A DNA stretch of 64,000 nucleotides, from NCBI RefSeq assembly GCF_002224265.1, contig NZ_CP012881.1, positions 3,038,001 through 3,102,000 on the forward strand, read 5' to 3'. The notes under the pieces are model-generated. The model worked only from the letters and a program-made list of their open reading frames with translations, was not told the DNA's origin and ran no database searches. Source of the stretch: Vibrio vulnificus NBRC 15645 = ATCC 27562 (lineage in GTDB: Bacteria > Pseudomonadota > Gammaproteobacteria > Enterobacterales > Vibrionaceae). Both the position numbers and the translations under genes were made by a program. This document shows positions 557 through 42,528 of the stretch, piece by piece. Every line of letters starts with the position of its first letter. Position 1 is the first letter of the stretch.

Positions 557-681
557 TGCTAACAAATTGCTTAAGAGTGACAGCTAACCTTTGGCATTTT
601 TGGTTTGGGTGAGTTTAGTGATTACGGTGGCTTTGCTTGAACTTAATGGTTGGTTAGCTGCACCTTAGCAAAGCGTTATGT
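557..681 (+). repeat. attC site 1
   Basis: It opens with TGCTAAC and closes with GTTATGT. The inner arms GGTTAGCTGCACCTTAGC and GCTTAAG...CAGCTAACC pair, giving the typical attC hairpin. It belongs to the Shedu cassette. Confidence 0.85.
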
Positions 682-1135
682 TTAGTCACGTAAAATCAGT
701 TGGTTGCATCTTTTCTTTGCTTTCTCAGCTTTCTAATTTTGGTCTTGTCGGCAAGTTAACTTCAGTGTTCGCTGTTTTCTGGACTCCAATTCGTGGGCGC
801 TAAAAATTCTGAGAGTCGCCTCATTTAAGTTCAGTGCGTTTTTGAGTCGAATGACGCAAAGTTTGAGCTCCAATTTTCGGTTTTCCACGCTAAAACTCAA
901 TATCAGTAAATTCAAATTTATTAGTTAATTCAGTTTTTTAGCGTCTAGTTTTGGTTTTCAAAGATAAGTTGAGTTAAGCTTTGGTATCGCAAAACTTAAC
1001 CCTTTGAGCCTTAAACATAACAAGGCGTTTAAGTGGGATTCATGCCGCGTGGCATTTTTGGTATGCGGTGAGTTTTGGTGGTGAAAGTGGTCTGCGGGAA
1101 GTTGGTTTAGGCGGCATTCACCCCTTAACGCAGCG
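676..1135 (+). repeat. ORF-less cassette A1 (family A), attC 1015-1141
   Basis: The cassette starts TTATGTTTAGTCACGTAAAA and ends CTTAAACATAAC followed by attC. No open frame is maintained between family members, and the frames that are open carry no recognisable ribosome binding site. It is the first of nine family A copies and is followed directly by A2 and B1. Confidence 0.8.
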
Positions 1136-1141
1136 TTATGT
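1015..1141 (+). repeat. attC site 2
   Basis: ACATAAC to GTTATGT, of the common class with GGCGTTTAAG...GATTCATGCCGC. It terminates cassette A1. Confidence 0.85.
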
Positions 1142-1608
1142 TTAGTCACGTAAAATCAGTTGGTTGCATCTTTTCTTTGCTTTCTCAGCTTTCTAATTTT
1201 GGTCTTGTCGGCAAGTTACGTTTAGTGGTCGCTGTTTTCTGGACTCCAATTCGTGGGCGCTAAAAATTCAGAGAGTTGCCTCATTAAAGTTCAGTGCGTT
1301 TGTGAGTCGAATGAAGCGATGTTAGTTTCAACGTTTGAGCACCAGCTTTCGGTTTCTCACGCTAAAATCTCAATGTCAGTACAATCAAATTTATGAGTTA
1401 ATTCAGCTTTTTAGCTTCTAACTTTGGTTTTCAAAGATAAGTCGAGTTAAGCTCTTGGTATCGTAAAACTTAACCGTTCGAGTCTTAAACATAACAAGGC
1501 GTTTAAGCGGGATTCATGCCGCGTGGCATTTTTGGTTTGCGGTGATTTTTGTGGTGAAAGTGGTGTGCGGAAACTTGGTTTAGGCGGCACTCACCCCTTA
1601 ACGCGGCG
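1136..1608 (+). repeat. ORF-less cassette A2 (family A), attC 1489-1614
   Basis: Second family A copy. By eye it is identical over its whole length, including the attC, to copy A8 at 34392-34864. No supported gene. Confidence 0.8.
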
Positions 1609-1614
1609 TTATGC
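1489..1614 (+). repeat. attC site 3
   Basis: ACATAAC to GTTATGC, common GCGTTTAAGCGGG class; terminates A2. Confidence 0.85.
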
Positions 1615-2079
1615 TTAATCACCTAAAATCAGTGGTTTATGGTTTTTCTTTGTTCCCTAGGCTTTTCAGTTTTGTGTTTGTCGGCAAGCTGGCTTTTTTG
1701 AGCGCTGTTTTTCGGACACTTATTCTTTGGCGCTAGAAATTCAGAGAATTGCCTCATTCAATTCTTGGGCAAGCGCGAGGTTAGGGCGGTTGGCTCAATC
1801 AGAGACTTGATCTTAGGTTTTTTCGTTTTAGCTGCCAAATTTCAAAGTCTGATTTTCAAAATCATGAGTCATTTCAGTTTTTTGGTTTTTGGCTTTTGTT
1901 TGTGAATCAAAGTCGAGTTAATCTTGTTTTTAGTAAAACGTAAGCCATTGAAGCTTAAGCATAACAAGGCGTTTAAGCGGGATTCATGCCGCGTGGCATT
2001 TTTGGTTTGCAGTGAGTTTTGGTGGTGAAGGTGGTCTGCGGAAAGTTGGTTTATGCGGCATTCACCCCTTAACGCAGCG
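1609..2079 (+). repeat. ORF-less cassette B1 (family B), attC 1959-2085
   Basis: Starts TTATGCTTAATCACCTAAAA and ends AAGCTTAAGCATAAC. Family B is alignable with family A through GTCGGCAAG, the GCGCTGTTTT-GGAC stretch, GTTGCCTCA and GAGTTAA. Small indels break every frame between copies, so a protein is unlikely. Confidence 0.8.
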
Positions 2080-2085
2080 TTAAAT
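1959..2085 (+). repeat. attC site 4
   Basis: GCATAAC to GTTAAAT, common class; terminates B1. Confidence 0.85.
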
Positions 2086-2098
2086 GTAAAGGTCAGTT

Positions 2099-2815
2099 AT
2101 GCAAGATGTTTTAAAGGAAACAATTAAGTTTTCGACTGAAAAGGCGGTTTTGTTTCAGTTCAACTCTAAGAGTAAATTGGCAGCCTATAGTATGGGTATT
2201 TATTGCACATTAATAGAGCTATCGGATTCATTTCATACGCTCATGGATAGTCAAAACTATACGGGCTCATTGTCAATTTATCGCTCATTTATAGAGAATT
2301 ATGTCGATTTAAGAAACCTGCAATTAAATCCTCATTATGTATATCAATTGGATTACGGTAGCTATCTGCAGGAGCAGCGGTTATTGAAGGCAGCGGCAAA
2401 AGAAAACCCTTATTTGTCTTCAATTTCCCAATACGCTGATGAGAAACTTCCCTTAATTTCTGTTGAAATCGACAAGCTGAAGGAAAATGAAGACTACAAA
2501 CTCTGTTACACGATAAAAGACAAGTTTAGCCGTGCGAATATGGAAGCTGAATATGAAGGGTTATACCCGACATTAAGCGCAGAGTCGCACTGTAGTTTAG
2601 ATGCAATCTTTTCTCGTCACTTTAATATCGACCCAAAAACAGGCTGTGTAGATATTTCAATCAATGATAAATGTAACAGCAAGGACTACCACTTCTATAT
2701 CGTTAACCTGACCAATTACTTGATTACCGCAGGTATAGCGGTAGCCAATATAATGGAAGGGCAGCAACTGGATGTGTATGTCAGTAAAAAAGAGCAACTA
2801 TTAGATGTACTGTGA
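2099..2815 (+). CDS. DUF5677-family cassette protein
   Basis: 238 residues, mainly helical, no signal peptide or membrane segment. The pattern SIYRSFIENYVDLRNL near residue 60, a KFSRANMEAEYEGLY stretch near 143 and LSAESHCSL shortly after fit the DUF5677 family, whose function is unknown and which recurs in mobile and accessory DNA. The ATG lies 19 bases inside the cassette boundary, after AAAGGTCAG as a weak ribosome binding site. The gene fills its cassette and stops 8 bases before the attC. Family recognition is from motifs only. Confidence 0.65.
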   Translation: MQDVLKETIKFSTEKAVLFQFNSKSKLAAYSMGIYCTLIELSDSFHTLMDSQNYTGSLSIYRSFIENYVDLRNLQLNPHYVYQLDYGSYLQEQRLLKAAAKENPYLSSISQYADEKLPLISVEIDKLKENEDYKLCYTIKDKFSRANMEAEYEGLYPTLSAESHCSLDAIFSRHFNIDPKTGCVDISINDKCNSKDYHFYIVNLTNYLITAGIAVANIMEGQQLDVYVSKKEQLLDVL

Positions 2816-2822
2816 TTCTTAC

Positions 2823-2948
2823 ATTTAACAATCTGTTTAAGAGGGATTCGCAACGCGTGGCATTTTTACTATGCGTTAGTTTAAGTGTTTAAGGAGGTAT
2901 GCGGCGGCATCAGTATTGCGTTGCTCACCCCTTAACAGGGCGTTAGGG
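2823..2948 (+). repeat. attC site 5
   Basis: ATTTAAC to GTTAGGG, of the CTGTTTAAGAGGG...CAACGCGTGGC class; terminates the DUF5677 cassette. Confidence 0.85.
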
Positions 2949-2987
2949 GCTTTCGCATAATTTTAGTTAATACGAAGAGGTAGATTT

Positions 2988-3337
2988 TTGAGCGTTAAAA
3001 GTGTTGTTTGGTTTGTAGCAATTAGCTTTACGGTTTTATCATTGGCGTCGTCAGTAGTTGCTTTTAATGATCCTGTTTTTGAACTTAATGAGAACCAAGT
3101 TCTCTACCTTTATTCAACATCAGCACAGGTATTAGCTGGTATTTATGGGCTTACATTGTCCGGATTTATCTTTTTTCGAAACGAGCTAAGTCGTGAACAA
3201 TTCGAAGATAATTCACTTTCAGATGCTGTTGAACGGCTTAAAAAACGATATTTTTACTTATTAGGTGTAGTTACGTTCTGTACGTTTTTGACTCTGGGGT
3301 TATCAAATATGGTGATTGCAATGGAGGGCTCTAATAG
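2988..3337 (+). pseudogene. membrane-protein cassette gene truncated by IS3 copy 1
   Basis: It starts with TTG after GAAGAGG at 2974-2980. About 116 native residues remain: a hydrophobic segment at residues 6-26, a second near 45-63 and a third near 90-110, with charged RNELSREQ and RLKKRY loops between. It looks like a small multi-span inner-membrane protein of unknown function. The insertion sequence starts at 3338, so the last 14 codons of the open frame are IS-derived. The native 3' end and attC are not found on the far side of the IS. Confidence 0.65.
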
Positions 3338-3376
3338 CGGCGTTTTTCAAGGTAGTTGTCATCATTCGCTTAGTTA

Positions 3377-4385
3377 TTAAGCGGCTTTTCTTTCTGGATT
3401 TAGATGAACCTCACCAACGGGTTCACAGTTCCTTATCTTGCCTGACCAACGCTCTGGGTGTCGCTCTCTTGCTATCGACAACACATCCGAACGACGTCTT
3501 AAAATCTCGCTATCTTTACCACTGTGACGCTCTGATGGCGTAACGTAATTTAACTTACTGTGCTTGTGCTCGGTGTTGTACCAACGTACGAACGCCTCAA
3601 CCCAACTACGACTTGCATCGAGTTGTTCAAAGCCTTTTGTTGGCCAGCTAGGCATGTACTTCACTGTGCGGAACAGCGACTCAACATACGGGTTATCATC
3701 ACTGACTCTCGGGCGACTGTATGATGAAGTAATACCAAGCTCATCCATTTTCGCTCTGAACGTCAGTGACTTCATTGGCGCACCATTGTCCGAGTGAAGT
3801 ACCAGTGGCTGATTAAAGCATTGCTCGCGCATCAGCGTCCGCTGCAATAACTGTGACGCTAACTCACCGCATTCACATTCGTAGACATCATAGCCAACGA
3901 TTTTTCGGCTATAGATATCTTCAATCACGTAGAGAATAGTGCTGTCCCTTAACCACAGATGGCAAGTACGTAATGTCCCATGTGTACACCTGATTGGGAC
4001 CTGTTGCCGTATAACTTGTTGGCTTGGCCTGCCTTTGTCGACTTCGCTGACGACCTCGGGTATGAAGCTGACCTTCTGCTTTCAAAACCCGATAGTAGCT
4101 CGACTCTGAAGCAATATACTCACCATTATCAAGCAACGTCGGGACAATTTGAGTTGGTGGTAAACTTGCGTATTCAGGGCGGTTGCACACCTCAATAATC
4201 GCATTGCGCTCTTGCGGTGATAGCTTGTTAGCAGGCACAGGTCTAACGCAGGTCGGTCTTTTGTCTGTCCGTATTTCACCTCGCTGATACCAGCGTCGAT
4301 ACGTTCTCAAGTCGATTTGAACTTCATTGCAGGCGTACTCTAGACGGCAGCCACTTCGCTTGGCATCGTGGATAAGAGTGAGCAA
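3377..4385 (-). pseudogene. IS3-family orfB split by a 2-bp deletion (copy 1)
   Basis: The upstream piece (3921-4385) ends HYSLRD and carries the first catalytic aspartate (WDITYLP). The downstream piece (3377-3928) carries HSDNG and the glutamate region NPYVESLF. In copy 3 these are one 336-residue DDE integrase. The frame break falls between the first and second catalytic residues, so no active orfB can be made without a compensating frameshift. Confidence 0.88.
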
Positions 4386-4408
4386 GTATTGCCTTTCATC
4401 GGTTGAGG

Positions 4409-4909
4409 TTAATCTTCCTCTGGCTCTTCCCCGTAAAAGGCTCTCAGCTTTTTTCGAAGAACCAATAGCGCCGCCGTTTCCGCTAACGCTTTTTCTTTAA
4501 AGCGTAACTCTTTTTTCAGCTCTTTAATTTCAAGTTTGTCAGCTTTAGCTTGTTTCTTGGCTTCAGCCTCACGCTCTTTAGCAGACATAAACCCTTGCAT
4601 ACACTCACTTCGCCAACCTTGCACTTGTTCAGGGAACAAGCCTTTCTCGCGGCAATACTGACTGAGTTCATTCTCCGTCATCGAGTAAGTTTCAGCGACA
4701 ATGGCGAGTTTAGTTTGAGCAGACCACTGCTCTGATGAAGTATGACTATTTGGCACAGCGGCTCCTGAACGTCTAAGTTGCTGCCGCCAATGATACAGGG
4801 TGGCAGTGCTAATACCTTCCTCTTTTGCTACTTGGCTTACAGACATTGAATAAGGAGGCAGTAGCTTCTTCAATATGGCTTCTTTTCTTTCTGTTGGAAT
4901 GCGATTCAA
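4409..4909 (-). CDS. IS3-family transposase orfA (copy 1)
   Basis: 166 residues with an N-terminal helix-turn-helix (SQVAKEEGISTATLYHWR) and a C-terminal lysine/glutamate-rich coiled coil, the usual DNA-binding half of an IS3-family transposase. Near its 3' end an AAAAAAG heptamer (reverse complement of 4448-4454) is the typical slippery site for -1 frameshifting into orfB. The orfA protein sequence reads the same in all five copies. Confidence 0.9.
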   Translation of the reverse strand: MNRIPTERKEAILKKLLPPYSMSVSQVAKEEGISTATLYHWRQQLRRSGAAVPNSHTSSEQWSAQTKLAIVAETYSMTENELSQYCREKGLFPEQVQGWRSECMQGFMSAKEREAEAKKQAKADKLEIKELKKELRFKEKALAETAALLVLRKKLRAFYGEEPEED

Positions 4910-4973
4910 AACTCACTCATTACCACCCAAACTGGTTAAATTTTAACAGTGACAACTATCCTGCCAGAGGGGG

Positions 4974-5401
4974 GTTCCCTCGGCGTTTCAGTTTTGTGTT
5001 TGTCGGCAAGTTGGCTTTTTAGAGCGCTGTTTTTCGGACACTTATTCTTTGGCGCTAGAAATTCAGAGAATTGCCTCAATCAATTTTTGGGCAAGCGCGA
5101 GGTTAGGGCGGTTGGCTCAATCAGAAATTTGATCTTAGGTTTTTCGGTTTTATCTGCCAAAGTTCAAAGTCTGATTATCAAAACTATGATTCATTTCGGT
5201 TTTCTACGTTTTGGTTTTTGTTTGTGAATCAAAGTCGAGTTAATCTTGGTTCTAGTCAAACGTAAGCCATTGAAGCTTAAGCATAACAAAGCGTTTAAGT
5301 GGGATTTGGCACGCGTGGCATTTTCGGTTTGCGTTGGGCTCAGTGATTAAGTCGCTGTGCGGTAGCTTTTGTATTGCGTGCCTGCACCCCTTAACGCAGC
5401 G
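4974..5401 (+). repeat. family B ORF-less cassette, 5' end lost at IS copy 1
   Basis: Begins at TTCCCTCGGC, which corresponds to about base 45 of an intact B cassette, and ends with a normal B-type GCTTAAGCATAAC and attC. The missing 5' part, including the matching TTATGCTTAA core, was removed with the DNA left of the IS. Confidence 0.8.
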
Positions 5402-5407
5402 TTATGC
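5281..5407 (+). repeat. attC site 6
   Basis: GCATAAC to GTTATGC with a variant left arm (GGGATTTGGCACGCGTGGC); terminates the truncated B cassette. Confidence 0.85.
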
Positions 5408-5534
5408 AAATATTCAAATCAGCCCATTTCTCAATGCTTATGTCTTAGGCTGTAGATGTAAATAAATTGGCTAACTGGCTAAAGCATTCTGGTAAACTGC
5501 GTCCAAACTAAGCGGTATTATTAGGACCAAAGCA

Positions 5535-5756
5535 ATGAGCCAAGATCAGCCAAACAACCCTTTACATGGATTAACGTTAGAGAAAATCCTTGTTCGCTTA
5601 CAAGAGCACTATGGTTGGGAAGGGTTAGACAGAGAAATTCAAATTAACTGTTTTTACAGCAATCCATCAATCAAATCTTCTCTTAAGTTTTTGCGTCGCA
5701 CACAGTGGGCGAGAGACAAGGTTGAGGCTTTGTATATAGATACGTTTTGCCGTTAG
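5535..5756 (+). CDS. VF530-type (DUF2132) small DNA-binding protein
   Basis: 73 residues: [12 protein letters not shown], then [14 protein letters not shown], then [16 protein letters not shown] and a closing KVEALY. This is the whole-length signature of the VF530/DUF2132 family, a small helical fold reported to bind DNA. The ATG follows AGGACC at a normal distance. About 130 bases between the cassette core and the ATG have no other reading frame and may hold the promoter. It stops 7 bases before attC. Confidence 0.8.
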
Positions 5757-5763
5757 AACATTT

Positions 5764-5890
5764 GCATAACAAAGCGTTTAAGAGGGATTCATGCCGCGTG
5801 GCATTTTTGGTTTGCAGTGAGTTTTGGTGGTGAAAGCGGTCTGCAGAAACTTGGTTTATGCGGCACTCACCCCTTAACGCAGCGTTATAT
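5764..5890 (+). repeat. attC site 7
   Basis: GCATAAC to GTTATAT, common class; terminates the VF530 cassette. The TTA of the right core is also the stop codon of the opposite-strand ccdB gene of the next cassette. Confidence 0.85.
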
Positions 5891-6202
5891 GCCAGTAATC
5901 AGGAAGTCGATAGCAGCAATAATCTCGTTTCTAAAAGTGCTCAAATCATTTACCGGATCACGCAATATCTTAGTTGGTACACTCGCCATTTGGTGAGTTA
6001 GGATTACGAAGTCACCTTCATCAATGTGGATCACTGGGCATAGGTGAGTAGGGGCTTTCTTCTCTAACATTTCAACCGGTGTTAATGGAATCACCAGTCG
6101 GGTATTCAGTGTATCAAGCATTTCACTTTGAACATCAACAAAGTATGGGTAAGCGGTAGCAGTGCTTTTATCGTTATTTTGGTATAGTGAAAACTGTGAC
6201 AT
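5885..6202 (-). CDS. ccdB: CcdB-type gyrase-poisoning toxin
   Basis: 105 residues beginning MSQFSLYQN, with YPYFVDVQSEML, TRLVIPL, a central HLCPVIHIDEGDFVILTHQM and a C-terminal FLITGI, all characteristic of CcdB. The family traps DNA gyrase on DNA; the C-terminal tip is critical for that. The terminal isoleucine here replaces the W-G-I end of the F-plasmid protein only in part (TGI). It overlaps its antitoxin by one base. Its stop codon is the first three bases of the cassette, so the gene uses the cassette completely. Confidence 0.9.
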   Translation of the reverse strand: MSQFSLYQNNDKSTATAYPYFVDVQSEMLDTLNTRLVIPLTPVEMLEKKAPTHLCPVIHIDEGDFVILTHQMASVPTKILRDPVNDLSTFRNEIIAAIDFLITGI

Positions 6203-6447
6203 TAGAATACTCGATAAGAATCAGAAAACAGACCGTGATTTTCGGTTAGTTCATTGCAAGCGTTGATAGCATCAGCATTTTGCTCTAACCACTCAGTCTT
6301 ACGGCGCTGATTTACTTCTTTTTCAAGGGCTTTTTCCATTGTTGCCGAGAGGTTTATGTTTAGGCGCTTAGCTTCAGCGAGTAACTCGCTATTTAAGCTT
6401 AAGTTTGCAGCCTTCTTGGGTGCTTGCGTACTATATGCGTTTCTCAT
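6202..6447 (-). CDS. ccdA: CcdA-type antitoxin
   Basis: 81 residues: an N-terminal ribbon-helix-helix-like part (KAANLSLNSELLAEAKRLNINLS) and a C-terminal toxin-binding tail (WLEQNADAINACNELTENHGLFSD) as in CcdA. It precedes ccdB and is read against the cassette direction, so it must have its own promoter between 6448 and the attC. The last base overlaps ccdB, implying translational coupling. Confidence 0.9.
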   Translation of the reverse strand: MRNAYSTQAPKKAANLSLNSELLAEAKRLNINLSATMEKALEKEVNQRRKTEWLEQNADAINACNELTENHGLFSDSYRVF

Positions 6448-6471
6448 AATAATTACCTATGCGTATTTATG

Positions 6472-6494
6472 GTGCGCATTAAGTATAGGCGCAC
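6472..6494 (-). promoter_or_regulatory. putative ccdAB operator/promoter
   Basis: An inverted repeat GTGCGC-N11-GCGCAC lies 25-47 bases upstream of ccdA, and the minus-strand spacer contains TATACT, a good -10 hexamer. It is a plausible site for CcdA/CcdB autorepression. The arms are only 6 bp, so this is inference. Confidence 0.45.
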
Positions 6495-6501
6495 GAAAGG
6501 C

Positions 6502-6627
6502 ATATAACAAACAATTTAAGAGTGATTCCCCACGCTTGGCATTTTTAGTTTGGGTTTAGTTTAGTGTTTACGGCGTCCAAGTTGAGTGCAGTGGTAGCGT
6601 GGCTCACACCTTAATTGGGCGTTATGT
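6502..6627 (+). repeat. attC site 8
   Basis: ATATAAC to GTTATGT, of the CAATTTAAGAGTG...TTAATTGGGC class; terminates the ccdAB cassette. Confidence 0.85.
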
Positions 6628-6765
6628 GTCCGAGTAAGTTCGAAGATGTAATTGATAATCATGTAACTGTGCTTTCCTTCTCAAGGTCTTATTTTTAATC
6701 AGTTTTTAGTTATGTGGATTTGTTTTAAAAGTGTAGGCTAGTTTGTGTTTAAATGCGGAGGTCTC

Positions 6766-7191
6766 ATGGTTAAACATATTTATCAACAATACAATTCTCT
6801 TAAAGAAGGTGAAAAAGAGTATCTTAAATTAAACCCTCACCATGCTATAGCAATAAAAGAAGCGAAAGATGTTGCTTTTTTCGAAACAGAATCTCGCTTT
6901 GGCATCAATGGACACAATGATAAAAGCGATGCATTTCGTCATTGTTTTTGGTCTTCGATGCTAGCTCGTGACATTGGATACAAAAATGCTCTCGAATTTA
7001 CGACAGCACATGAAAACTTTCCGGAAAACCCAGAAAATGAAAAGGTCATGGATTTACACAATAATAAAGTTGGTATTCGGTTAGGGTTATCGATGGCGAG
7101 TAATGATAAACTTGCACATTATTGTTACACTTCATTGCTAGCAGGTCGTCTTAAGGTAATAAAGAAAGAGAAGAAAGAGAAGAAAAAATGA
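6766..7191 (+). CDS. DUF6973-like protein with HN/DAFRH motifs
   Basis: 141 residues from the ATG after GCGGAGG (an upstream in-frame start at 6745 is less likely). It carries KSDAFRHCFWSSMLARDIG near residue 65, AHE and MDLHNNKVG; the spaced His and Asn residues are those conserved in DUF6973, found alone and as C-terminal domains of large secreted proteins. The extreme C terminus is lysine/glutamate repeats. Its ATGA overlaps the start of a lipoprotein gene, so the two form one transcription unit in a single cassette. Function is unknown. Confidence 0.6.
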   Translation: MVKHIYQQYNSLKEGEKEYLKLNPHHAIAIKEAKDVAFFETESRFGINGHNDKSDAFRHCFWSSMLARDIGYKNALEFTTAHENFPENPENEKVMDLHNNKVGIRLGLSMASNDKLAHYCYTSLLAGRLKVIKKEKKEKKK

Positions 7192-7574: not shown

Positions 7575-7599
7575 AAATAAAAGTCACCTTAGTTGTAAC

Positions 7600-8195: not shown

Positions 8196-8201
8196 TTATA
8201 T
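8075..8201 (+). repeat. attC site 10
   Basis: GCATAAC to GTTATAT; terminates B2. Confidence 0.85.
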
Positions 8202-35535: not shown

Positions 35536-35536
35536 C

Positions 35537-35663: not shown

Positions 35664-36119
35664 TTAGTCACGTAAAATCAGTTGGTTGCAGATTTTTTTG
35701 CTTTCTAATTTTGGCCTTGTCGGCAAGCTGGCTTTCGGTGGTCGCTGTTTTCTGGACTCCAATTCGTGGGCGCTAAAAATTCTGAGAGTTGCCTCATTAA
35801 AGCTCAGTGCGTTTGTGAGTCGAATAAAGCGTCTTAGTTTCAAAGTTTGAGCTCTAGTTTTCTGTTTCTCACGTTAAAACTCAAAGTTAGCACAATCAAA
35901 TTTATGATTTAATTCAGCTTTTTAGCGTCTGGTTTTGGTTTGCAAAGGTAAGTCGAGTTAAGCTATTGGTATCGCAAACTTAACCCTTTGAGCCTTAAAC
36001 ATAACAAGGCGTTTAAGCGGGATTCATGCCGCGTGGCATTTTTTGTTTGCGGTGATTTTTGGTGGTGAAAGTGGTCTGCAGAAGCTTGGTTTATGCGGCA
36101 TTCACCCCTTAACGCGGCG
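35658..36119 (+). repeat. ORF-less cassette A9 (family A), attC 35999-36125
   Basis: Shortened start like A4/A6 (GTTGCAGATTTTTTTGC) but divergent elsewhere. No supported gene. Confidence 0.8.
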
Positions 36120-36125
36120 TTATGT
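35999..36125 (+). repeat. attC site 42
   Basis: ACATAAC to GTTATGT; terminates A9. Confidence 0.85.
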
Positions 36126-36151
36126 GTCCTCAGTGAAAATAAGACGGAACT

Positions 36152-36686
36152 ATGTTCATAGAATCATTAAAAATCAGGCTTCGCTCACTTGAAGTTGATG
36201 ATGCTGAATACTTTTATCAGTGGTCTGGTGATAGGGAAGTGACACAATTCAGCCTGTCAGCTTATGCCTATCCGCAATCTCGTTCAGATATTGCTAAGTG
36301 GCTGTCGGACATTAACTCAAGTTCAAAGACGATTTCTTTTGGTATCGAGTAGAGAAAGCCAAAAACTGATTGGTTATGCTGGTATTTCAGGGATTAGCTC
36401 ACTTAACCGAAGTGGTGAGTATTTTATCCTCATTGGTGATAAAGCATTTTGGGGCAAGGGGCTAGGAACAGAAGTCACGCGTTTAGTCACTAATTATGGA
36501 TTCCGAGAGCTTGGCTTACATCGAATAGAATTGACCGCATATTGTGACAACGTAGCGGCAATCAAAGCTTATGAAAAGGCAGGCTATCAGCACGAAGGTA
36601 TCAAAAGAGAATCGGGTTATCGCAATGGCCGATTCATGGACAAAGTCCAAATGTCCGTTTTATCGCGAGAGTGGCCGGCCACATAA
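36152..36686 (+). pseudogene. frameshifted GNAT acetyltransferase
   Basis: The first frame gives MFIESLKIRLRSLEVDDAEYFYQW...SSSKTISFGIE then TAG at 36350. The second frame continues SRESQKLIGYAGISGI, YFILIGDKAFWGKGLGTEVTRLV (motif A), LTAYCDNVAAIKAYEKAGYQHEG, the end of a RimJ/RimL-like GNAT. A one-base change near 36345 would join them. Its attC is of V. cholerae type and supplies the stop codon. Confidence 0.78.
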
Positions 36687-36808
36687 CAAACGCCTCAAGA
36701 GGGACTGTCAACGCGTGGCGTTTCCAGTCCCATTGAGCCGCGGTGGTTGCAGTTGTTGTGTTTGAGTTTAGTGGCATGCGTTGCCAGCCCCTTAGGCGGG
36801 CGTTAGGT
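36681..36808 (+). repeat. attC site 43, V. cholerae-repeat (VCR) type
   Basis: ACATAAC to GTTAGGT with AACGCCTCAAGAGGGACTGT, CGCGTGGCGTTTCCAGTCCC and CCAGCCCCTTAGGCGGGC, essentially the canonical VCR and clearly unlike every other site in the window. Confidence 0.88.
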
Positions 36809-36828
36809 GTTTCTAGGAGATGGAAGAT

Positions 36829-37752
36829 ATGTTTAACCAATGGGAAGTGAAAGAGGCGTTCGCTGAGATAACAGTGGAATGTTGGGGTGACTTGGTCTAT
36901 CTCCTCGAAGCTAGTTTTTTAGATTGGTCGGAATTTATATTTCGAGGACAAGCTGACTCTGATTGGACTTTAAGATCTAAGTTTGATCGGGACTATAAAA
37001 ATATGCTCTCTGAGATTAGTAATTATAATTCTTCAGAAGCCTCTAAAATCAAAGGTTTGATACAGCTTAAGCCTCGACATGATTTACTTAAAGAACATTT
37101 GTCTAGGTTTAAGACTAACACTGTTGGCAGAAGAGGTGCTAGCCCTACTAGCTTGAATGATATGGAATGGTGGTCTTTAGGTCAGCACTTTGGTTTGTCT
37201 ACACCTTTGCTTGATTGGTCTAGATCGCCTTATGTATCGCTATATTTTTCACTCATCTCTCAAACTTTACCTGAATCTGGGTATCACGCACTTTGGGTAT
37301 TCTCTCCAGCAGCGTTTCATGATTTACATATTAATCAAGACCATAGAGTTGAATCAGAAGACGAAAGTATTAGATTCATCCATGATGCATTGTGTGAGGA
37401 AAACCAGAGGGTTATTAGTCAGGGAGGTGTTTTCACACTTACGCCTAACGGCGAAGATATTGACGAATTCATCCCTAAGGTACTCAATTTAAATGGGCAT
37501 GCACCTGTGTTGTATAAAATCAAAATACCAATGTCTAATAGAGATGACTTTTTGAGGCATTTGGAGTCAATGAACGTGCATAGTGGGACACTTTTCCCTG
37601 ATTTAATTGGTGCTGCAGATTTAGCAAATAGGCAACTGGAAAAGGAAAAAACGCTTTTGCTTCGCCGAAAAAGTGATAGCTTTGCCGATAGGTTATTCAG
37701 CCTTAATCTATACCACGAAACACCTAACAAAGCGTTTAAGAGTGATTCGTAA
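36829..37752 (+). CDS. FRG-domain protein
   Basis: 307 residues from the ATG 9 bases after AGGAG (the ATG at 36820 directly abuts the ribosome binding site). FIFRGQADSDWTLRSKFDRD near residue 35 is the FRG motif; MEWWSLGQHFGLSTPLLDWSRSPYVSLYFSL follows, the second conserved block. Function unknown; the family is frequent in mobile DNA and phage-defence neighbourhoods. The frame does not stop before the attC: its last dozen residues (PNKAFKSDS) are encoded by the left arm of its own attC. Confidence 0.78.
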   Translation: MFNQWEVKEAFAEITVECWGDLVYLLEASFLDWSEFIFRGQADSDWTLRSKFDRDYKNMLSEISNYNSSEASKIKGLIQLKPRHDLLKEHLSRFKTNTVGRRGASPTSLNDMEWWSLGQHFGLSTPLLDWSRSPYVSLYFSLISQTLPESGYHALWVFSPAAFHDLHINQDHRVESEDESIRFIHDALCEENQRVISQGGVFTLTPNGEDIDEFIPKVLNLNGHAPVLYKIKIPMSNRDDFLRHLESMNVHSGTLFPDLIGAADLANRQLEKEKTLLLRRKSDSFADRLFSLNLYHETPNKAFKSDS

Positions 37753-37847
37753 CGCGTGGCATTTTTACCATGCGTTGGTATTTGTGGTTAAGATGGTTTG
37801 CAGGGGCTCCAGCATTGCGTTACTCACACCTTAACGCGGCGTTATGT
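37722..37847 (+). repeat. attC site 44
   Basis: ACCTAAC to GTTATGT; the left arm encodes the C terminus of the FRG protein. Confidence 0.85.
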
Positions 37848-37860
37848 GCTTGGAGATAAA

Positions 37861-38277
37861 ATGAGAAAACTATCAATCATTACATTGGGTGTATCAAATA
37901 TCGAGGTTTCCGCAAAGTTCTATGAAACCGTACTTGGATTAGAACGCACAGATTATCAATCTGATGAAATTGTATTTCTGGATATTGATGGTCCGGAATT
38001 AGCTCTGTTTCCCAAATCCGAATTAGCAAAAGATGTTGGTGTTGAACCAAATGGATCAGGCTTTGCCGGTATTACACTGGCTAGAAATGTTCGTTCGTCT
38101 GGTGAAGTGCTTAGTCTGCTGAAAAAAGCTGAGGATAATGGTGGGAAAATCGTCAAACAGGGACAGGCAGTGTTTTGGGGTGGTTTTTCAGGTTACTTCT
38201 CTGATCCAGATGGATACTTGTGGGAGATAGCTGTAGGTTCAGAGCTCTATAAAGCAGAAATTGAGCAACGCACATAA
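37861..38277 (+). CDS. VOC-superfamily protein
   Basis: 138 residues from ATG after TTGGAG. LSIITLGVSNIEVSAKFYETVLGLER, FAGITLARNV, GGKIVKQGQAVFWGGFSGYFSDPDGYLWEIAVG: a complete two-module VOC fold with the usual F-x-D-P-D-G-x-x-W-E-I end and glutamate ligand. Substrate unknown. TAA stop within the attC core. Confidence 0.85.
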   Translation: MRKLSIITLGVSNIEVSAKFYETVLGLERTDYQSDEIVFLDIDGPELALFPKSELAKDVGVEPNGSGFAGITLARNVRSSGEVLSLLKKAEDNGGKIVKQGQAVFWGGFSGYFSDPDGYLWEIAVGSELYKAEIEQRT

Positions 38278-38397
38278 CAAATTGTTCAAGAGGGATTCGC
38301 AACGCGTGGCATTTTTACTATGCGTTGGTATTAGTGTTTAAGGCGGTATGCGGTGGCATCGGTATTGCGTTGCTCACCCCTTAACAAGGCGTTATGC
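38272..38397 (+). repeat. attC site 45
   Basis: ACATAAC to GTTATGC; terminates the VOC cassette. Confidence 0.85.
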
Positions 38398-38868
38398 TTA
38401 ATCATGTAAAATTAGTGGTTTATGGTTTTTCTCTGTTCCCTCAGCTTTTCAGTTTTGTGTTTGTCGGCAGTCGGCTTTTTTGAGCGCTGTTTTTCGGACA
38501 TCAATTCTTTGGCGCTGAAAATTCTGAGTGTTGCCTCAATCAATTTTCGGGCAATCGCGAGGTTAGGGCGGTTGGCTCAATCAGAAATTTGATCTTAGGT
38601 TTTTTCGTTTTAGCTGCCAAAGTTCAAAGTCTGATTTTCAAAATCATGAGTCATTTCAGTTTTTTGGTTTTTGGTTTTTGGCTTTTGTTTGTGAATCAAA
38701 GTCGAGTTAATCTTGTTTTTAGTAAAACGTAAGCCATTGAAGCTTAAGCATAACAAGGCGTTTAAGCGGGATTCATGCCGCGTGGCATTTTTGGTTTGCA
38801 GTGAGTTTTGGAGGTGAAAGTGGTTTGCAGAAACTTGATTTATGCGGCACTCACCCCTTAACGCGGCG
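38392..38868 (+). repeat. ORF-less cassette B7 (family B), attC 38748-38874
   Basis: Starts TTATGCTTAATCATGTAAAA. No supported gene. Confidence 0.8.
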
Positions 38869-38874
38869 TTAGCT
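38748..38874 (+). repeat. attC site 46
   Basis: GCATAAC to GTTAGCT; terminates B7. Confidence 0.85.
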
Positions 38875-38945
38875 TACTAGTTCAACTTGTTGACTATATT
38901 CGAGTTTTATATAGAATTATCCCCTAGTGGATTTAGGCAGAGGTT

Positions 38946-38972
38946 TGGAGTTCAATTCTCCACTTCAGCACC
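38946..38972 (+). other. tRNA 3'-end-like segment (T-arm plus acceptor-like tail)
   Basis: TGGAG-TTCAATT-CTCCA forms a 5-bp stem with a 7-base loop fitting the TTCRANY T-loop rule, followed by seven bases CTTCAGC and ACC, exactly the spacing of a tRNA 3' end. The complementary 5' acceptor GCTGAAG is absent upstream, so it is not a whole tRNA. A tRNA or tmRNA fragment captured in a cassette is one reading; chance is another. Confidence 0.35.
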
Positions 38973-39068
38973 CTGGACATAATAACCGGACTCACGTTTG
39001 TAATTATCACACTAAATTACATCAACAATTTGTTAGTTTCACATCCGACAAATAAACGAGGAGGTTTT

Positions 39069-39248
39069 ATGGAAAGATTCGTTCAAAACGTAAAGTATTT
39101 CGCTTCAGCAGTAGTAAATGGGGTGAGTGCGGTTTGTTCTGGTGTTGTCGCAACTGGTGTAACTTCAGGGTTGAACCTAGAGAGTGTAAGCTCTCAGGGC
39201 TTCTTCCTAAGTCCACTCATTCCTACCAAGTTCGTCACCAGCCATTAA
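39069..39248 (+). CDS. small hydrophobic cassette protein
   Basis: 59 residues from the ATG after an excellent GAGGAGG (39058-39064). An amphipathic, alanine/valine-rich middle (YFASAVVNGVSAVCSGVVATGVTSG) could lie in or on a membrane. No family recognised. The ribosome binding site is the best evidence that it is real. It shares its cassette with the tRNA-like segment upstream. Confidence 0.55.
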   Translation: MERFVQNVKYFASAVVNGVSAVCSGVVATGVTSGLNLESVSSQGFFLSPLIPTKFVTSH

Positions 39249-39255
39249 CCCCGTA

Positions 39256-39381
39256 AGCTAACAAACAATTTAAGAGTGATTCTGCACGCTTGGCATTTTT
39301 GGTTTGGGTTTAGTTCAGTGATTACGGTGGTCAAATTGAGTATCGTGGTCGCGTGCTTCACACCTTAATTGGGCGTTAGCT
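39256..39381 (+). repeat. attC site 47
   Basis: AGCTAAC to GTTAGCT, CAATTTAAGAGTG class. Confidence 0.85.
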
Positions 39382-39383
39382 TT

Positions 39384-39803
39384 TCATATGTTAGGCAGCT
39401 TGCTTTTCAGTTCCAAAAGTAGCAAGTAGGCAGAGTTGCCAGTCATTTCATATGGAGAAAACGCGCTTGTTGCTGAGAATTTAAGAGTCACAGGTTTTGT
39501 TGTGCTGGACGCAGGGATATAGCCCATGGTCCAATCGTGAAAGTCTCTACTGTCAATTTCAGAGTAATCAAGGATGACCACATTATGGTGTCTCGAATCA
39601 TTAATAATTGAGCGATAGACTTGGTTGACAGTGTTTCGTTCACCTTCTAGGCATTGAAGGAAGTGCTGGCTGTTGAAGAAAAGAATACCAGTTATCCCTA
39701 GTTTCAAATTGTTGTGCTTGGCGGACTCTAAAATGGCATCAACGTCAGCATGTGTCATTTGCTCTGTTATGGTGCTCGTATAAATGAGTCTTGTAAGTTT
39801 CAT
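39384..39803 (-). CDS. BLUF-domain blue-light receptor
   Basis: 139 residues, nearly all BLUF. LTRLIYTSTIT contains the conserved tyrosine, HNNLKLGITGILFFNSQHFLQCLEGE contains the flavin-contacting asparagine and the signalling glutamine, and DWTMGY the tryptophan/methionine region. Binds FAD and changes hydrogen bonding on blue light. No output domain is attached, so it must act on a partner protein. Read against the cassette direction; the start is taken at MKL (AGGAT upstream) rather than further upstream frames. Confidence 0.88.
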   Translation of the reverse strand: MKLTRLIYTSTITEQMTHADVDAILESAKHNNLKLGITGILFFNSQHFLQCLEGERNTVNQVYRSIINDSRHHNVVILDYSEIDSRDFHDWTMGYIPASSTTKPVTLKFSATSAFSPYEMTGNSAYLLLLELKSKLPNI

Positions 39804-39851
39804 ATTGGGCATCCTATGTGTTTTTAAAACTATAAGACAAGTTGGCGAAAA

Positions 39852-39978
39852 AGCTAACAAAGCGTTAAAGAGGGACTTGGCACGCGTGGCATTTTCAATT
39901 TGCGTTGGGTTTAGTGGTTAAGGTTTTATGCGGCCACTTTTGTATTGCGTGCCTGCGCCCCTTAACGCGGCGTTAGCC
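39852..39978 (+). repeat. attC site 48
   Basis: AGCTAAC to GTTAGCC; terminates the BLUF cassette. Confidence 0.85.
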
Positions 39979-39999
39979 GTCATGGAGCTTGCTATACTC

Positions 40000-40023
40000 A
40001 AAGTGATAGAATAGTATCACTTT
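40000..40023 (+). promoter_or_regulatory. operator-like inverted repeat upstream of a TA module
   Basis: AAAGTGATA-N6-TATCACTTT, 9-bp perfect arms, 24 bases before the antitoxin start. Phd/YefM antitoxins bind such palindromes to repress their own operon. Confidence 0.6.
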
Positions 40024-40046
40024 AGTATTCCTTTGGAGCAGCTCTC

Positions 40047-40304
40047 ATGAAAGTAGAACTAGTTACATCACTCAAACGTCAAGCAACTAAGATCCTCGCG
40101 GATCTCCACGACACCAAAGAACCGGTGTTAATTACTGAGCATGGTAAGCCATCCGCGTATCTCGTTGATGTTGATGACTACGAGTTTATGCAAAATCGTT
40201 TAGCTATTCTTGAGGGTATTGCACGAGGTGAGCGTGCACTAGCTGATGGTAAAGTGTTAAGTCATGATGAAGCCAAGGACAAAATGTCAAAATGGCTGAA
40301 ATAA
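40047..40304 (+). CDS. Phd/YefM-type antitoxin
   Basis: 85 residues: VTSLKRQATKILADLHDTKEPVLITEHGKPSAYLVDVDDYEFMQ, the Phd/YefM DNA-binding fold, followed by a helical toxin-binding tail. ATG after TTGGAGCAG. Overlaps the toxin by 13 bases. Confidence 0.9.
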   Translation: MKVELVTSLKRQATKILADLHDTKEPVLITEHGKPSAYLVDVDDYEFMQNRLAILEGIARGERALADGKVLSHDEAKDKMSKWLK

Positions 40305-40594
40305 TCTGGACTGAGCCAGCGTTATCTGACCTCAACGATATCGCTGAATACATCGCACTTGAAAATATCGTAGCTGCAAAGCAGTTAGTGCAAACGATCT
40401 TCTCCAAAGTCGAACGCCTGCAAACTTTCCCAGAGTCAGGTCGTATTCCACCCGAGCTAGAACATTTAAGTTATCGTGAAGTTGTCGTTAATCCATGTCG
40501 TGTTTTCTATAAACAAGACGGTGGCAAAGTGTTTATTCTGTTTGTTATGCGTGCAGAGAGAGATTTGCGTAAGTTCCTGTTGAGTAAGCAGTAA
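40292..40594 (+). CDS. RelE/ParE-family toxin
   Basis: 100 residues: IIWTEPALSDLNDIAEYIALENIVAAKQLVQTIF, FPESGRIPPEL, YREVVVNPCRVFYKQDGGKVFILFVMRAERDL. Standard RelE/ParE fold; which target (ribosome-bound mRNA or gyrase) cannot be told from sequence. Confidence 0.9.
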   Translation: MAEIIWTEPALSDLNDIAEYIALENIVAAKQLVQTIFSKVERLQTFPESGRIPPELEHLSYREVVVNPCRVFYKQDGGKVFILFVMRAERDLRKFLLSKQ

Positions 40595-40609
40595 CCTTTG
40601 GGAATGAGC

Positions 40610-40735
40610 GGCTAACAAACTGTTTAAGAGTGATTCGCAACGCGTGGCATTTTTACCATGCCTTTGCTTTAGTGGTTAAGGTGGTATGCGGGAGCTTCGG
40701 TATTGCGTTGCTCACACCTTAACAGGGCGTTATGT
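40610..40735 (+). repeat. attC site 49
   Basis: GGCTAAC to GTTATGT, CTGTTTAAGAGTG class. Confidence 0.85.
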
Positions 40736-40795
40736 GCTTTTTCGGAAAATCTCAAAATCGCGTACAATCAGCGTTTTGAAATAGCGGAAATCATC

Positions 40796-41209
40796 ATGTC
40801 TAAAACTGTTCAGCAGCAAATCGGAAACGTCGCTCTAGTCGTTGAAAATTACGACGATGCTATTGAGTTCTATACTCAAAAACTTCAGTTCACACTGGTT
40901 GAAGATACTGACTTAGGTGGAGGTAAACGCTGGGTTCAAGTTCCCCCTCCAAACTCCAATGGTACGAATTTGCTCTTGGCTCAAGCGAGTACACCAGAAC
41001 AAACGCAAGTAGTAGGAAATCAAACGGGTGGTCGTGTGTTCTTGTTCCTACAAACTAATGATTTCTGGCGAGACTACGAGTTAATGAAGACAAATGGTGT
41101 TGTATTTAATGAAGAGCCACGAGTTGAAGAGTACGGTACAGTGGTGGTATTCCAAGATCTCTATGGTAACAAATGGGATTTACTGCAACTAAACAGAGCA
41201 ACCAAATAG
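40796..41209 (+). CDS. VOC-superfamily protein
   Basis: 137 residues. IGNVALVVENYDDAIEFYTQKLQFTLVEDTDLGGGKRWVQV opens the first module and RVFLFLQTNDFWRDYELMKTNGVVF to VVVFQDLYGNKWDLLQ the second. Glyoxalase/bleomycin-resistance-like; substrate unknown. ATG after GCGGAAATCATC; the upstream frame runs through attC. Confidence 0.85.
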   Translation: MSKTVQQQIGNVALVVENYDDAIEFYTQKLQFTLVEDTDLGGGKRWVQVPPPNSNGTNLLLAQASTPEQTQVVGNQTGGRVFLFLQTNDFWRDYELMKTNGVVFNEEPRVEEYGTVVVFQDLYGNKWDLLQLNRATK

Positions 41210-41214
41210 CACGC

Positions 41215-41343
41215 ACATAACAAGCAATTTAAGAGGGATTCACAACGCTTTGCATTTTTGCTTCTACTTCAAATTTAGTGGTTATGGCACAATGCTTTAG
41301 GTTAGGGTGTAGGCGTTGTTCACCCCTTAATTGGGCGTTATAC
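41215..41343 (+). repeat. attC site 50
   Basis: ACATAAC to GTTATAC, CAATTTAAGAGGG class; terminates the VOC cassette. Confidence 0.85.
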
Positions 41344-41348
41344 CGCAA

Positions 41349-41639
41349 TCAATCATCTAACCTTTTCATGGCTTTACGGTAAACATCGCTACGTTCTCGT
41401 TTTCCGACTGCTAAGACGGTTACAATGATGACATCGTCTTCAACTTTGTAGACGAGACGGTAGCCCGATTGACGCAACTTAATTTTATACATGTTGTCAG
41501 CTCCAGAAAGTTTTGAAGCTGGAACATGTGGGTTATCTAAGCGCTCGATTAGCTTTTTCTTAAATTGTTGTTGCAGAGTAGAGCCAAGCTTTTTCCACTC
41601 TTTGAGTGCGCTCTTTTTAAAGTCGAGTTTATAGGTCAT
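41349..41639 (-). CDS. relE: RelE-type mRNA interferase toxin
   Basis: 96 residues: YKLDFKKSALKEWKKLGSTLQQQFKKKLIERL, SKLSGADNMYKIKLRQSGYRLVYKVEDDVIIVTVLAVGKRERSDVY. The K-L-R-x-x-G-Y-R-L-V-Y and G-K-R-x-R blocks are those of RelE proper. Overlaps the antitoxin gene by 11 bases. Confidence 0.92.
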   Translation of the reverse strand: MTYKLDFKKSALKEWKKLGSTLQQQFKKKLIERLDNPHVPASKLSGADNMYKIKLRQSGYRLVYKVEDDVIIVTVLAVGKRERSDVYRKAMKRLDD

Positions 41640-41877
41640 CAATATTTACCGAAATGCTCTCTTCAGATTCACGCTCTTTAGCGATAGCTAGTAGTTCAAG
41701 ATCTTCGAGTCTGTCCATCATCATTTCGTACGCTTCGGCAGGTACGCAATAAAATGCTGGCTCATTTCGGTTTAACACAGCAACAGGTTCGCCATAAGCA
41801 CTAGTTGCAACTTTCATAGGGTTAGCTTTCAACTCGGTAATGCTTGCAGCAACATCGGCTAAAATTCTAGTGGTCAT
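41629..41877 (-). CDS. relB: RelB-type antitoxin
   Basis: 82 residues: ADVAASITELKANPMKVATSAYGEPVAVLNRNEPAFYCVPAEAYEMMMDRLEDLEL, the Phd-like RelB/StbD form. Promoter lies between 41878 and the attC, on the minus strand. Confidence 0.88.
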   Translation of the reverse strand: MTTRILADVAASITELKANPMKVATSAYGEPVAVLNRNEPAFYCVPAEAYEMMMDRLEDLELLAIAKERESEESISVNIDDL

Positions 41878-41931
41878 ATAATCGGTCTCTTAAGTGGTCT
41901 TTATGTTGGTCATTTTAGCCTCAATAAAGCG

Positions 41932-42057
41932 GTATAACAAGTTGCTTAAGAGTGATTCGCAACGCGTGGCATTTTTACTATGCGTCGGTTTTTGTGGTTA
42001 AGGTGGTATGCGGCAGCTTCGGCATTGCGTGCCTCACACCTTAATTGGGCGTTATGC
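41932..42057 (+). repeat. attC site 51
   Basis: GTATAAC to GTTATGC; terminates relBE. Confidence 0.85.
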
Positions 42058-42528
42058 TTAATCGCGTAAAATCAGTGGTTTATGGTTTTCTTTGTTCCCT
42101 CGGCTTGTTAGTTTCGAGTTTTTCGGCAAGTTGGCTTTTTTGAGCGCTGCTTTTCGGACACTTATTCTTTGGCGCTGGAAATTCAGAGAATTGCCTCATT
42201 CAATTCTCGGGCAAGCGCGAGGTTAGGGCGGTTGGCTCAATCAGAAATCCATTTTTAGGTTTTCAAACTTCAAACCAGATTTGCCAAAATTCCGAGCCTC
42301 ATTATCAAAACTATGATTCATTTCAGTTTTTTGGTTTTTGGCTTTTGTTTGTGAATCAAAGTCGAGTTAATCTTGTTTTTAGTAAAACGTAACCCATTGA
42401 AGCTTAAGCATAACAAGGCGTTTAAGAGGGATTCATGCCGCGTGGCATTTTTGGTTTGCAGTCAGTTTTGGTGGTGAAAGTGGCCTGCGGAAAGTTGGTT
42501 TAGACGGCACTCACCCCTTAACGCAGCG
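42052..42528 (+). repeat. ORF-less cassette B8 (family B), attC 42408-42534
   Basis: Starts TTATGCTTAATCGCGTAAAA; last ORF-less cassette before the array end. Confidence 0.8.

What the first reader, a model, noticed from the sequence alone, without database searches (positions are those of the whole stretch)
676..42528. Two related ORF-less cassette families make up about a third of the array
Eighteen cassettes (A1-A9, B1-B8 and one truncated B) share about 340-base bodies with no conserved frame, yet keep conserved blocks such as GTCGGCAAG, the GCTGTTTT-GGAC region, GTTGCCTCA, GAGTTAA and a family-specific start and end. Identical or near-identical amplification without a protein suggests either a functional non-coding element (structured RNA, promoter, decoy) or a selfish cassette optimised for recombination. 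An integron-encoded small RNA is known in Xanthomonas (sRNA-Xcc1), so RNA is a real option.
Basis: partly seen in the sequence, partly recalled or inferred. Interest (0 to 1): 0.8.

Follow-up and report, generated by a model that had tools for sequence, protein, structure and literature searches.

The report
Gene-less integron cassettes with IHF-like sites
About a third of the movable cassettes in this Vibrio gene-capture array carry no recognisable gene but belong to one widely copied DNA family; it shows no clear sign of encoding a protein or a structured RNA, and instead keeps a site that looks like a docking point for a DNA-bending protein close to the spot where cassettes are cut and joined.

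Summary
In detail: 18 copies among the window's 51 cassettes (9 A, 7 intact B, one B split by a group II intron, one truncated B). The family fills 73 of 227 cassettes of the 157 kb array and recurs in other Vibrio arrays with a distant third family, D. Copies are dispersed; near-identical ones occur in different species.

Structured RNA is not supported: covariation on 166 relatives gave one suggestive pair (E 0.08), part of the attC arm, while the same test recovers the attC fold. Protein is not supported: the ~41-codon ATG frame lacks synonymous bias and D lacks the ATG.

At +19 from the crossover lies the IHF consensus WATCARNNNNTTR: 150 of 166 A/B, 173 of 177 D, 19 of 23 in a held-out genome, with variable N4 and purines at R.

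Best reading: mobile gene-less DNA elements with an IHF-like site beside the recombination point; binding and effect are inferred. Gene-less families (Boucher 2006) and promoter activity (Blanco 2024) are known; my searches showed no paper on this site.

The parts
676..1018 (+). A body, IHF-like site 694-706 AATCAGTTGGTTG
1136..1492 (+). A body, IHF-like site 1154-1166; identical to the body at 34392-34748
1609..1962 (+). B body, IHF-like site 1627-1639 AATCAGTGGTTTA
4975..5284 (+). B body lacking its first ~43 bases (and so the IHF-like site), abutted by an insertion element at ~3338-4974
7720..8078 (+). B body, IHF-like site 7738-7750
8738..9098 (+). B body, IHF-like site 8756-8768
10618..10972 (+). 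A body, IHF-like site 10636-10648
15515..15859 (+). A body, IHF-like site 15533-15545
15977..16330 (+). B body, IHF-like site 15995-16007 AATCAGTTGGTTA
19413..19767 (+). A body, IHF-like site 19431-19443
20867..21226 (+). B body, IHF-like site 20885-20897 AATCAGTGGGTTA
22398..24680 (+). B cassette body split by a group II intron: body 22398-22417, intron ~22418-24346, body 24347-24680; the intron interrupts the IHF-like site
29821..30165 (+). A body, IHF-like site 29839-29851
30283..30624 (+). A body, IHF-like site 30301-30313
34392..34748 (+). A body, IHF-like site 34410-34422
35658..36002 (+). A body, IHF-like site 35676-35688
38392..38751 (+). B body; IHF-like site has one mismatch (38410-38422 AATTAGTGGTTTA)
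42052..42411 (+). B body, IHF-like site 42070-42082
561..42531 (+). Window part of the array whose attC sites bound these cassettes; R'' AACAA.. to R' ..GTTA, crossover between G and TT

Best explanation
These are members of one superfamily of gene-less integron cassettes, spread through several Vibrio arrays, that move as single cassettes. Their conserved content looks like DNA-level information, not a protein or a structured RNA. Two parts are recognisable: the outermost ~8 bases of each end, which are the two sides of the attC arm (shown; a feature of the other cassettes too), and a match to the IHF consensus WATCARNNNNTTR starting 19 bases from the crossover point (shown as sequence; binding inferred). 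Proposed mechanism, inferred: IHF binds and sharply bends the first ~35 bp of the cassette, against the att crossover point, and this favours capture or retention of the cassette, so that it multiplies; any effect on transcription of neighbours would come on top. Shown: the site's position and its presence in A, B, D and the long relatives, and the lack of protein-coding and covariation signals. Not shown: occupancy by IHF, movement in an assay, and any effect on recombination.
For: Dispersal: 72 of 226 parsed cassettes plus the attI-adjacent copy; 22 adjacent family-family pairs against 22.5 +- 3.2 in permutations; seven pairs of identical bodies, up to ~84 kb apart. The cassette beside the inferred attI is an A copy. 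Near-identical bodies in genomes of different species: 99.4% between G000 and G116, 98.9% between G088 and G140; 62 genome-label changes on the A/B tree against 93.2 shuffled and 13 minimum. IHF consensus within the first 40 bases: 150 of 166 unique A/B and 173 of 177 unique D, at exactly +19 in 147 and 172, 20 of 20 unique long relatives, 15 of 16 intact window copies, and 19 of 23 copies of a genome not used to find the motif, located with a model that lacked the start region. Markov expectation 0.6-0.8% (made for the A/B bodies and the other cassettes); other cassettes of the array 7 of 161; of the six plus-strand ones listed, three are relatives. Substitutions per column: consensus positions 2.4 (A/B) and 2.0 (D), N4 14.0 and 14.3, body mean 8.1 and 8.8. 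Changes from a purine at the two R positions stay purine in 11 of 12 (p 0.005) and 15 of 15 (p 0.00025), against 52% and 57% elsewhere. The array (157,142 bp) has 113 IHF consensus matches against 13 for the reversed pattern; the genome has 891 against 226. The genome has four PF00216 (IHF/HU family) matches.
Against: No binding or recombination data. The 6-4-3 contrast of slow and fast columns at +19 is high but not unique: rank 8 of 342 and 17 of 341 by difference, 3 and 4 by ratio. Fixed spacing to the crossover is suggestive only: 3 indel events in columns 1-18 against 6.2 expected, p 0.14. A/B, D and the long type are related, so they are not independent tests. Other slow blocks (TTGTCGGCAA, TTGCCTCATT, GAGTTAATCT) are not explained by IHF. 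Purified IntI1 has the activities needed for the first strand transfer (PMC2117344, one passage read). Five B copies have the site split by an intron and persist. Only one array's attI-adjacent cassette was looked at, and with a third of the array in this family one such find is expected often by chance. Species trees were not made, so the exchange between species rests on body identity alone.
Confidence: 0.42

Rival explanations
1. Promoter cassettes: the bodies carry sense-strand promoters that switch on neighbouring cassettes, and that benefit maintains them. The IHF-like site would then be an activator site.
For: Blanco et al. 2024 (PMC11014356; abstract, results parts 1-2 of 3, one methods section and discussion read) found sense-strand promoter activity in 11 of 13 V. 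vulnificus gene-less cassettes. [quoted passage not shown] IHF is reported as a weak activator of class 1 integron promoters (review PMC8876359, passages).
Against: No sigma-70-like pair is shared by most bodies: on the sense strand 4 of 32 A, 5 of 30 B and 3 of 177 D have one, against 14-16% in shuffled sequence; on the antisense strand 1 of 32, 6 of 30 and 25 of 177, against 23-31%. A few antisense or B sites recur in small subsets (at most 9 of 177 for one exact pair). Blanco et al. report that prediction does not match activity, so this counts little. Whether any cassette they tested belongs to this family could not be checked.
Confidence: 0.27
2. Purely selfish or neutral cassettes: copied because they are short, harmless and have good attC sites; conservation reflects recent copying and gene conversion.
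For: No cargo found; dispersed single copies, near-identical copies in different species; terminal arm about as long as in other cassettes.
Against: Substitutions are uneven along the body (variance/mean 6.4 and 12.1; alignment error may add to this) and at the IHF-like site follow the consensus down to purine-only positions in two families.
Confidence: 0.23
3. Functional structured RNA (sRNA or riboswitch-like).
For: Conserved blocks GTCGGCAAG and GTTGCCTCA are complementary (GGCAA/TTGCC) and recur in D and in both modules of the long relatives; being nearly invariant they could pair without covarying. RNAalifold z -3.6 and -3.7 (the two strands) on the full A/B alignment and -3.1 in one D sub-window on the minus strand.
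Against: No Watson-Crick pair inside the body reached E<1 in A/B or D, and no pair reached E<0.1 in A alone, B alone (both shallow, 1.1-1.4 changes per column) or A/B/D combined (best E 0.58, TT/AA); the positive control works at the A/B depth. Without the attC arm the z-scores are -1.5 and -2.2 (A/B) and +0.3 and -0.5 (D). No Rfam match.
Confidence: 0.05
4. Small protein or decayed gene: the 41-codon ATG frame of A and B encodes a small hydrophobic peptide, or did so once.
For: The frame runs open from the ATG through FWTPI(R/L)GR in 30 of 32 A copies; the exceptions are one early stop and one frameshift.
Against: Synonymous changes are not in excess: A 36 of 158 against 41.9 expected, B 46 of 174 against 47.5, all 94 of 387 against 104.4. 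Many B copies have stops or frameshifts. D has no ATG there. No Pfam or NCBIfam match over a cut-off for four translated copies.
Confidence: 0.03

Closest known systems
Highly paralogous non-coding cassette family of V. vulnificus (Boucher et al. 2006, PMC1382264; passages read)
   Same: Gene-less, 45 and 34 copies in two Vibrio arrays; the authors say non-coding cassettes have close homologues in other vibrios and none outside, and propose selfish, promoter or RNA roles.
   Different: Sequence identity with that family was not tested. New here: full-array census, third family D, covariation test with a positive control, and the IHF-like site.
Promoter cassettes (Blanco et al. 2024, PMC11014356; sections read)
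   Same: Gene-less cassettes of Vibrio superintegrons; bodies there 335-515 bp, here ~332-371.
   Different: Here no shared sigma-70-like promoter is seen; activity not tested. The parts I read do not mention IHF sites.
IHF-binding repeats of enterobacteria (BIME-1/RIP/RIB; recalled, no call)
   Same: Dispersed non-coding repeats carrying an IHF site.
   Different: Those are intergenic palindromic repeats; these are cassettes with attC sites.
IHF as accessory factor at att sites of lambda-type recombination and next to CRISPR leaders (recalled; lambda case also in a passage of PMC2117344)
   Same: IHF site at a fixed place beside a recombination point.
   Different: I know of no accessory protein established for attC recombination (recalled); here it is only inferred.
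sRNA cassette of Xanthomonas
   Same: Gene-less cassette.
   Different: No RNA-structure support here.

Membership tests
Integron gene cassette | Bounded by attC sites with R''/R' arms that pair | tested here: met
   65 bodies parsed between attC sites; start-end complementarity mean 7.5 bp, mismatched starts and ends 2.0; attC covariation
Integron gene cassette | Individually mobile | tested here: inconclusive
   Dispersed, not clustered, identical copies at a distance, one beside attI: indirect, no assay
Boucher non-coding cassette family | Many paralogues in one array, no ORF, homologues only in vibrios | tested here: inconclusive
   73 of 227 cassettes here; any match in 18 of 148 genomes of the genus incl. 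own, near full length in 12 of these 148; one of 11 pattern hits is in a Pseudoalteromonas MAG; identity with their family not checked
[quoted passage not shown]
   Needs a reporter or 5'-end RNA-seq
Promoter cassette | Shared sigma-70-like promoter (not required by Blanco et al.) | tested here: not met
   4 of 32 A, 5 of 30 B, 3 of 177 D on the sense strand; not clearly above shuffled 14-16%
Structured RNA / sRNA cassette | Covarying base pairs in the body | tested here: not met
   positive control
Structured RNA / sRNA cassette | Discrete transcript | not testable with these tools
   No RNA data
Protein-coding cassette | Conserved frame with synonymous bias | tested here: not met
IHF-site element | Match to WATCARNNNNTTR with constraint on its fixed positions | tested here: met
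IHF-site element | IHF binds | not testable with these tools
   Needs EMSA, footprint or ChIP
BIME/REP repeat | Palindromic REP units | not tested
   No search for REP units was made

The most novel reading that the evidence does not exclude
The superfamily spreads because it brings its own IHF bend to the recombination point: IHF at +19 acts as an accessory site for attC recombination or for array architecture, and has loaded a third of a superintegron with IHF sites all facing one way. That would make these the first integron cassettes known to me whose cargo is an accessory recombination or nucleoid site.
Probability: 0.27. Interest if true: 0.78.

Novelty: new variant of a known kind. Interest (0 to 1): 0.52.

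Why it matters
What the many gene-less cassettes of large Vibrio arrays do was posed as a question in 2006 (PMC1382264, passages). This work argues against the RNA and small-protein answers with controls and points to one 13-bp site whose role can be tested directly by mutation. If IHF acts there, host physiology would be tied to cassette traffic or to array expression.

Tried and rejected
Conserved peptide: the ATG frame looked convincing by eye but failed the synonymous test and the D comparison; one off-frame window (A, third frame, no ATG start seen by eye) had z 4.3, the largest of 72 window-frame-strand tests, and did not recur in B (-0.8). Structured RNA: not supported. Special family ends: shared with the other cassettes. 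Tandem duplication as the main route of amplification: no clustering. Shared sigma-70 promoter: not found. Fixed spacing to the crossover as proof of function: not significant. Uniqueness of the 6-4-3 pattern: not unique. The first attempt at the held-out genome returned no starts because the stretch searched for the cassette boundary was too narrow; redid it with 23 of 29 hits usable. That genome had been noticed through a start motif that ends in the first six bases of the site, so the test is independent for the copies but not for the choice of genome; 160 kb of it was fetched.

Rows dropped: of 374 full-length copies, 6 were left out of the A/B and D sets (five intron-split B copies and one weak match) and identical copies were merged (178 to 166, 190 to 177). 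In G000 one D-type cassette and one cassette sharing only the first 78 positions are not counted among the 73. First-look caps mean that copy counts in other genomes are lower bounds.
Full report
Setting. The window is bases 3038001-3102000 of contig 1 of a 5.0 Mb, two-contig genome. That it is a Vibrio is inferred from the cassette family, the array and the named pattern hits. The window's left 42.5 kb is the distal end of a chromosomal integron array. I fetched the rest of the array and parsed attC sites: 227 sites, 226 complete cassettes between them, 156.8 kb. An ORF on the minus strand at 2922216-2923194 ends in a motif that I recall as typical of tyrosine recombinases, and the first cassette beside it, with no attC found before it, is an A copy.

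The observation. Clustering of the 226 bodies gives one dominant group of 65: 32 A, 30 B, two A-ended B-like hybrids and one divergent copy. Five B copies split by a group II intron, one B copy cut by an insertion element and one interrupted by other DNA make 72 of 226, and the attI-adjacent copy makes 73 of 227.

How they spread. Copies are not clustered: 22 adjacent pairs against 22.5 +- 3.2 in permutations. Nearest relatives lie a median 34.7 kb apart (46.4 kb for all same-family pairs), and seven pairs of bodies are identical, 1.5 to 84 kb apart. All 62 matches to the start motif in the genome lie on one strand. A B body finds any match in 18 of 148 sampled genomes of the genus, own included, and a near full-length match in 12 of them; the start motif occurs in 19 of 227, with 62, 73, 33 and 32 copies in four genomes. 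A pattern scan of named genomes gave 11 stretches: six of Vibrio mimicus, two of a Vibrio sp., one each of V. fujianensis, V. sinaloensis and a Pseudoalteromonas MAG; the pattern was strict, close kin of the window may be left out, and I did not examine the MAG for contamination. Bodies from different genomes are up to 99.4% alike, and genome labels change 62 times on the A/B tree (shuffled 93.2, minimum 13) and 41 times on the D tree (61.1, 7), so there is local expansion and, I infer, exchange between species. A third family, D, starts TTAGCTTAAA and has 190 full copies, mostly in two genomes. A long form has model positions ~1-190 followed by ~41-354, an internal duplication.

Not a protein. 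Both families share an ATG frame that begins in the R' box (A: MFSHVKSVGCIFSLL...FWTPIRGR). It is attractive by eye and open to that point in 30 of 32 A copies. But synonymous changes are at or below expectation (A 36/158 vs 41.9; B 46/174 vs 47.5; all 94/387 vs 104.4), many B copies are shifted or stopped, and D has no ATG there. No Pfam or NCBIfam match passes its cut-off for four translated copies (one Pfam hit at E 0.1, 13 bits against 27).

Not a covarying RNA. I used a tree-based null (substitutions re-placed on branches; APC-corrected G statistic; my own code). On 166 unique A/B sequences with 8.1 changes per column, only pair 6-351 had E<1 (E 0.08; CG 84, TA 81 of 166): this is the attC arm, whose other columns hardly vary. 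D gave one pair below E 1 (0.75, AC/CA, not Watson-Crick). A alone, B alone and the combined A/B/D alignment gave no pair below E 0.1 (best combined pair E 0.58, TT/AA; A and B alone are shallow). Applied to 215 unique attC sites of the same array, each with its own body ends, the method gave 13 pairs with E<0.05, 12 of them complementary, and still 8-12 pairs at E<0.1 when thinned to 40-80 sites with 5-8 changes per column. RNAalifold on 25 diverse rows gave z -3.6 and -3.7 with the ends but -1.5 (plus) and -2.2 (minus) without them in A/B; in D -1.4 and -2.1 with the ends, +0.3 and -0.5 without; one D sub-window on the minus strand reached -3.1, of ten D rows. The nearly invariant complement GGCAA/TTGCC is outside the power of covariation, so a small structured core is not excluded.

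The ends. Start and end complementarity averages 7.5 bp in the 65 family bodies, 6.8 in the 161 others, and 2.0 when starts and ends of different cassettes are combined. Among 374 relatives the start/end pairs are TTAGCTTA/TTAAGCTA 190, TTATGTTT/TTAAACAT 88 and TTATGCTT/TTAAGCAT 85. The family-specific ends are therefore the cassette's own attC arm.

The IHF-like site. Among slow columns, positions 19-31 read AATCARNNNNTTR. This is the IHF consensus WATCARNNNNTTR (recalled; papers carrying that string or WATCAANNNNTTR appear in the listing, not read for it). It occurs within the first 40 bases in 150 of 166 A/B and 173 of 177 D copies, against 0.6-0.8% in Markov sequence made from the A/B bodies and from the other cassettes, and in 7 of the 161 other cassettes; three of the six plus-strand ones listed are relatives. 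Columns: A/B consensus mean 2.44 changes, N4 14.0; D 2.0 and 14.25. At position 31 A/B has A 95, G 71 and no pyrimidine; at position 24 D has A 157, G 20. Twenty-six of 27 changes from a purine at R positions keep a purine, against 52-57% elsewhere. The long relatives have it in 20 of 20 unique starts. In a genome fetched afterwards, copies located with a model lacking the first 44 positions have it in 19 of 23, all 19 at +19; the four exceptions each differ at one position. Caveats: other offsets show a similar slow-fast-slow pattern, and fixed spacing is not significant (3 indels against 6.2 expected, p 0.14). The array holds 113 consensus matches, 99 of them on the plus strand, against 13 for the reversed pattern, of 891 in the genome. 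The genome has four PF00216 matches, the family that holds IHF and HU.

Mechanism. IHF contacts about 35 bp with its consensus in the right-hand third (recalled from the lambda H' complex), so the protein would cover roughly bases +1 to +35, flush with the crossover. I think the likeliest use is as an accessory site that raises capture or retention of the cassette; promoter activation is the main rival, given Blanco et al. 2024 and weak activation of class 1 integron promoters by IHF (PMC8876359 passages). A shared sigma-70 promoter was not seen.

Prior work. Boucher et al. 2006 (passages) described a non-coding family with 45 and 34 copies in two V. vulnificus arrays and named selfish, promoter and RNA options. 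On IHF: one search listed four papers holding integron, IHF, attC and Vibrio (passages of two read; two seen in the listing only); one search listed three holding superintegron and integration host factor (passages of PMC11288032 read, but not its superintegron passages; two in the listing only); one search listed 12 of 2,570, none of the 12 with 'IHF binding site'. Nothing I saw describes IHF sites in Vibrio cassettes. Most subscription journals are outside that library.

Noticed in passing
22418-24346 (and four more copies elsewhere in the array): A group II intron (RT and maturase domains, Rfam group-II-D1D4-2) sits at the same position, after base 20, in five B cassettes. The introns differ by 0-1 of ~1930 bases while the bodies behind them differ by 24-60 bases and the 20 bases before are identical; this suggests independent homing into this family, inside the IHF-like site, though swapping of bodies by recombination is not excluded.
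   Followed up: partly
3338-4974, 13681-15317, 25438-27075, 27983-29623 (+), 43282-44918 (-): Five copies in the window of a ~1.64 kb insertion element (HTH_Tnp_1 and rve domains in the one copy checked), over 99% alike; one truncates a B body. The rest of the array was not searched for it.
   Followed up: partly
L072, L088, L090, L092 and others: Long relatives (~510 bp) carry an internal duplication of a module containing GTCGGCAA...TTGCCTCA.
   Followed up: partly
47921-49191: A DDE transposase gene next to an RNA-OUT antisense RNA match, beyond the array.
   Followed up: no
G000 2936683-2939411: Six family cassettes in a row (B A B B A A), the longest run in the parsed array.
   Followed up: no
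bodies, conserved blocks near positions 70, 141 and 307: TTGTCGGCAA, TTGCCTCATT and GAGTTAATCT are slow in A/B, and close versions of the first two recur in D; no explanation found.
   Followed up: no
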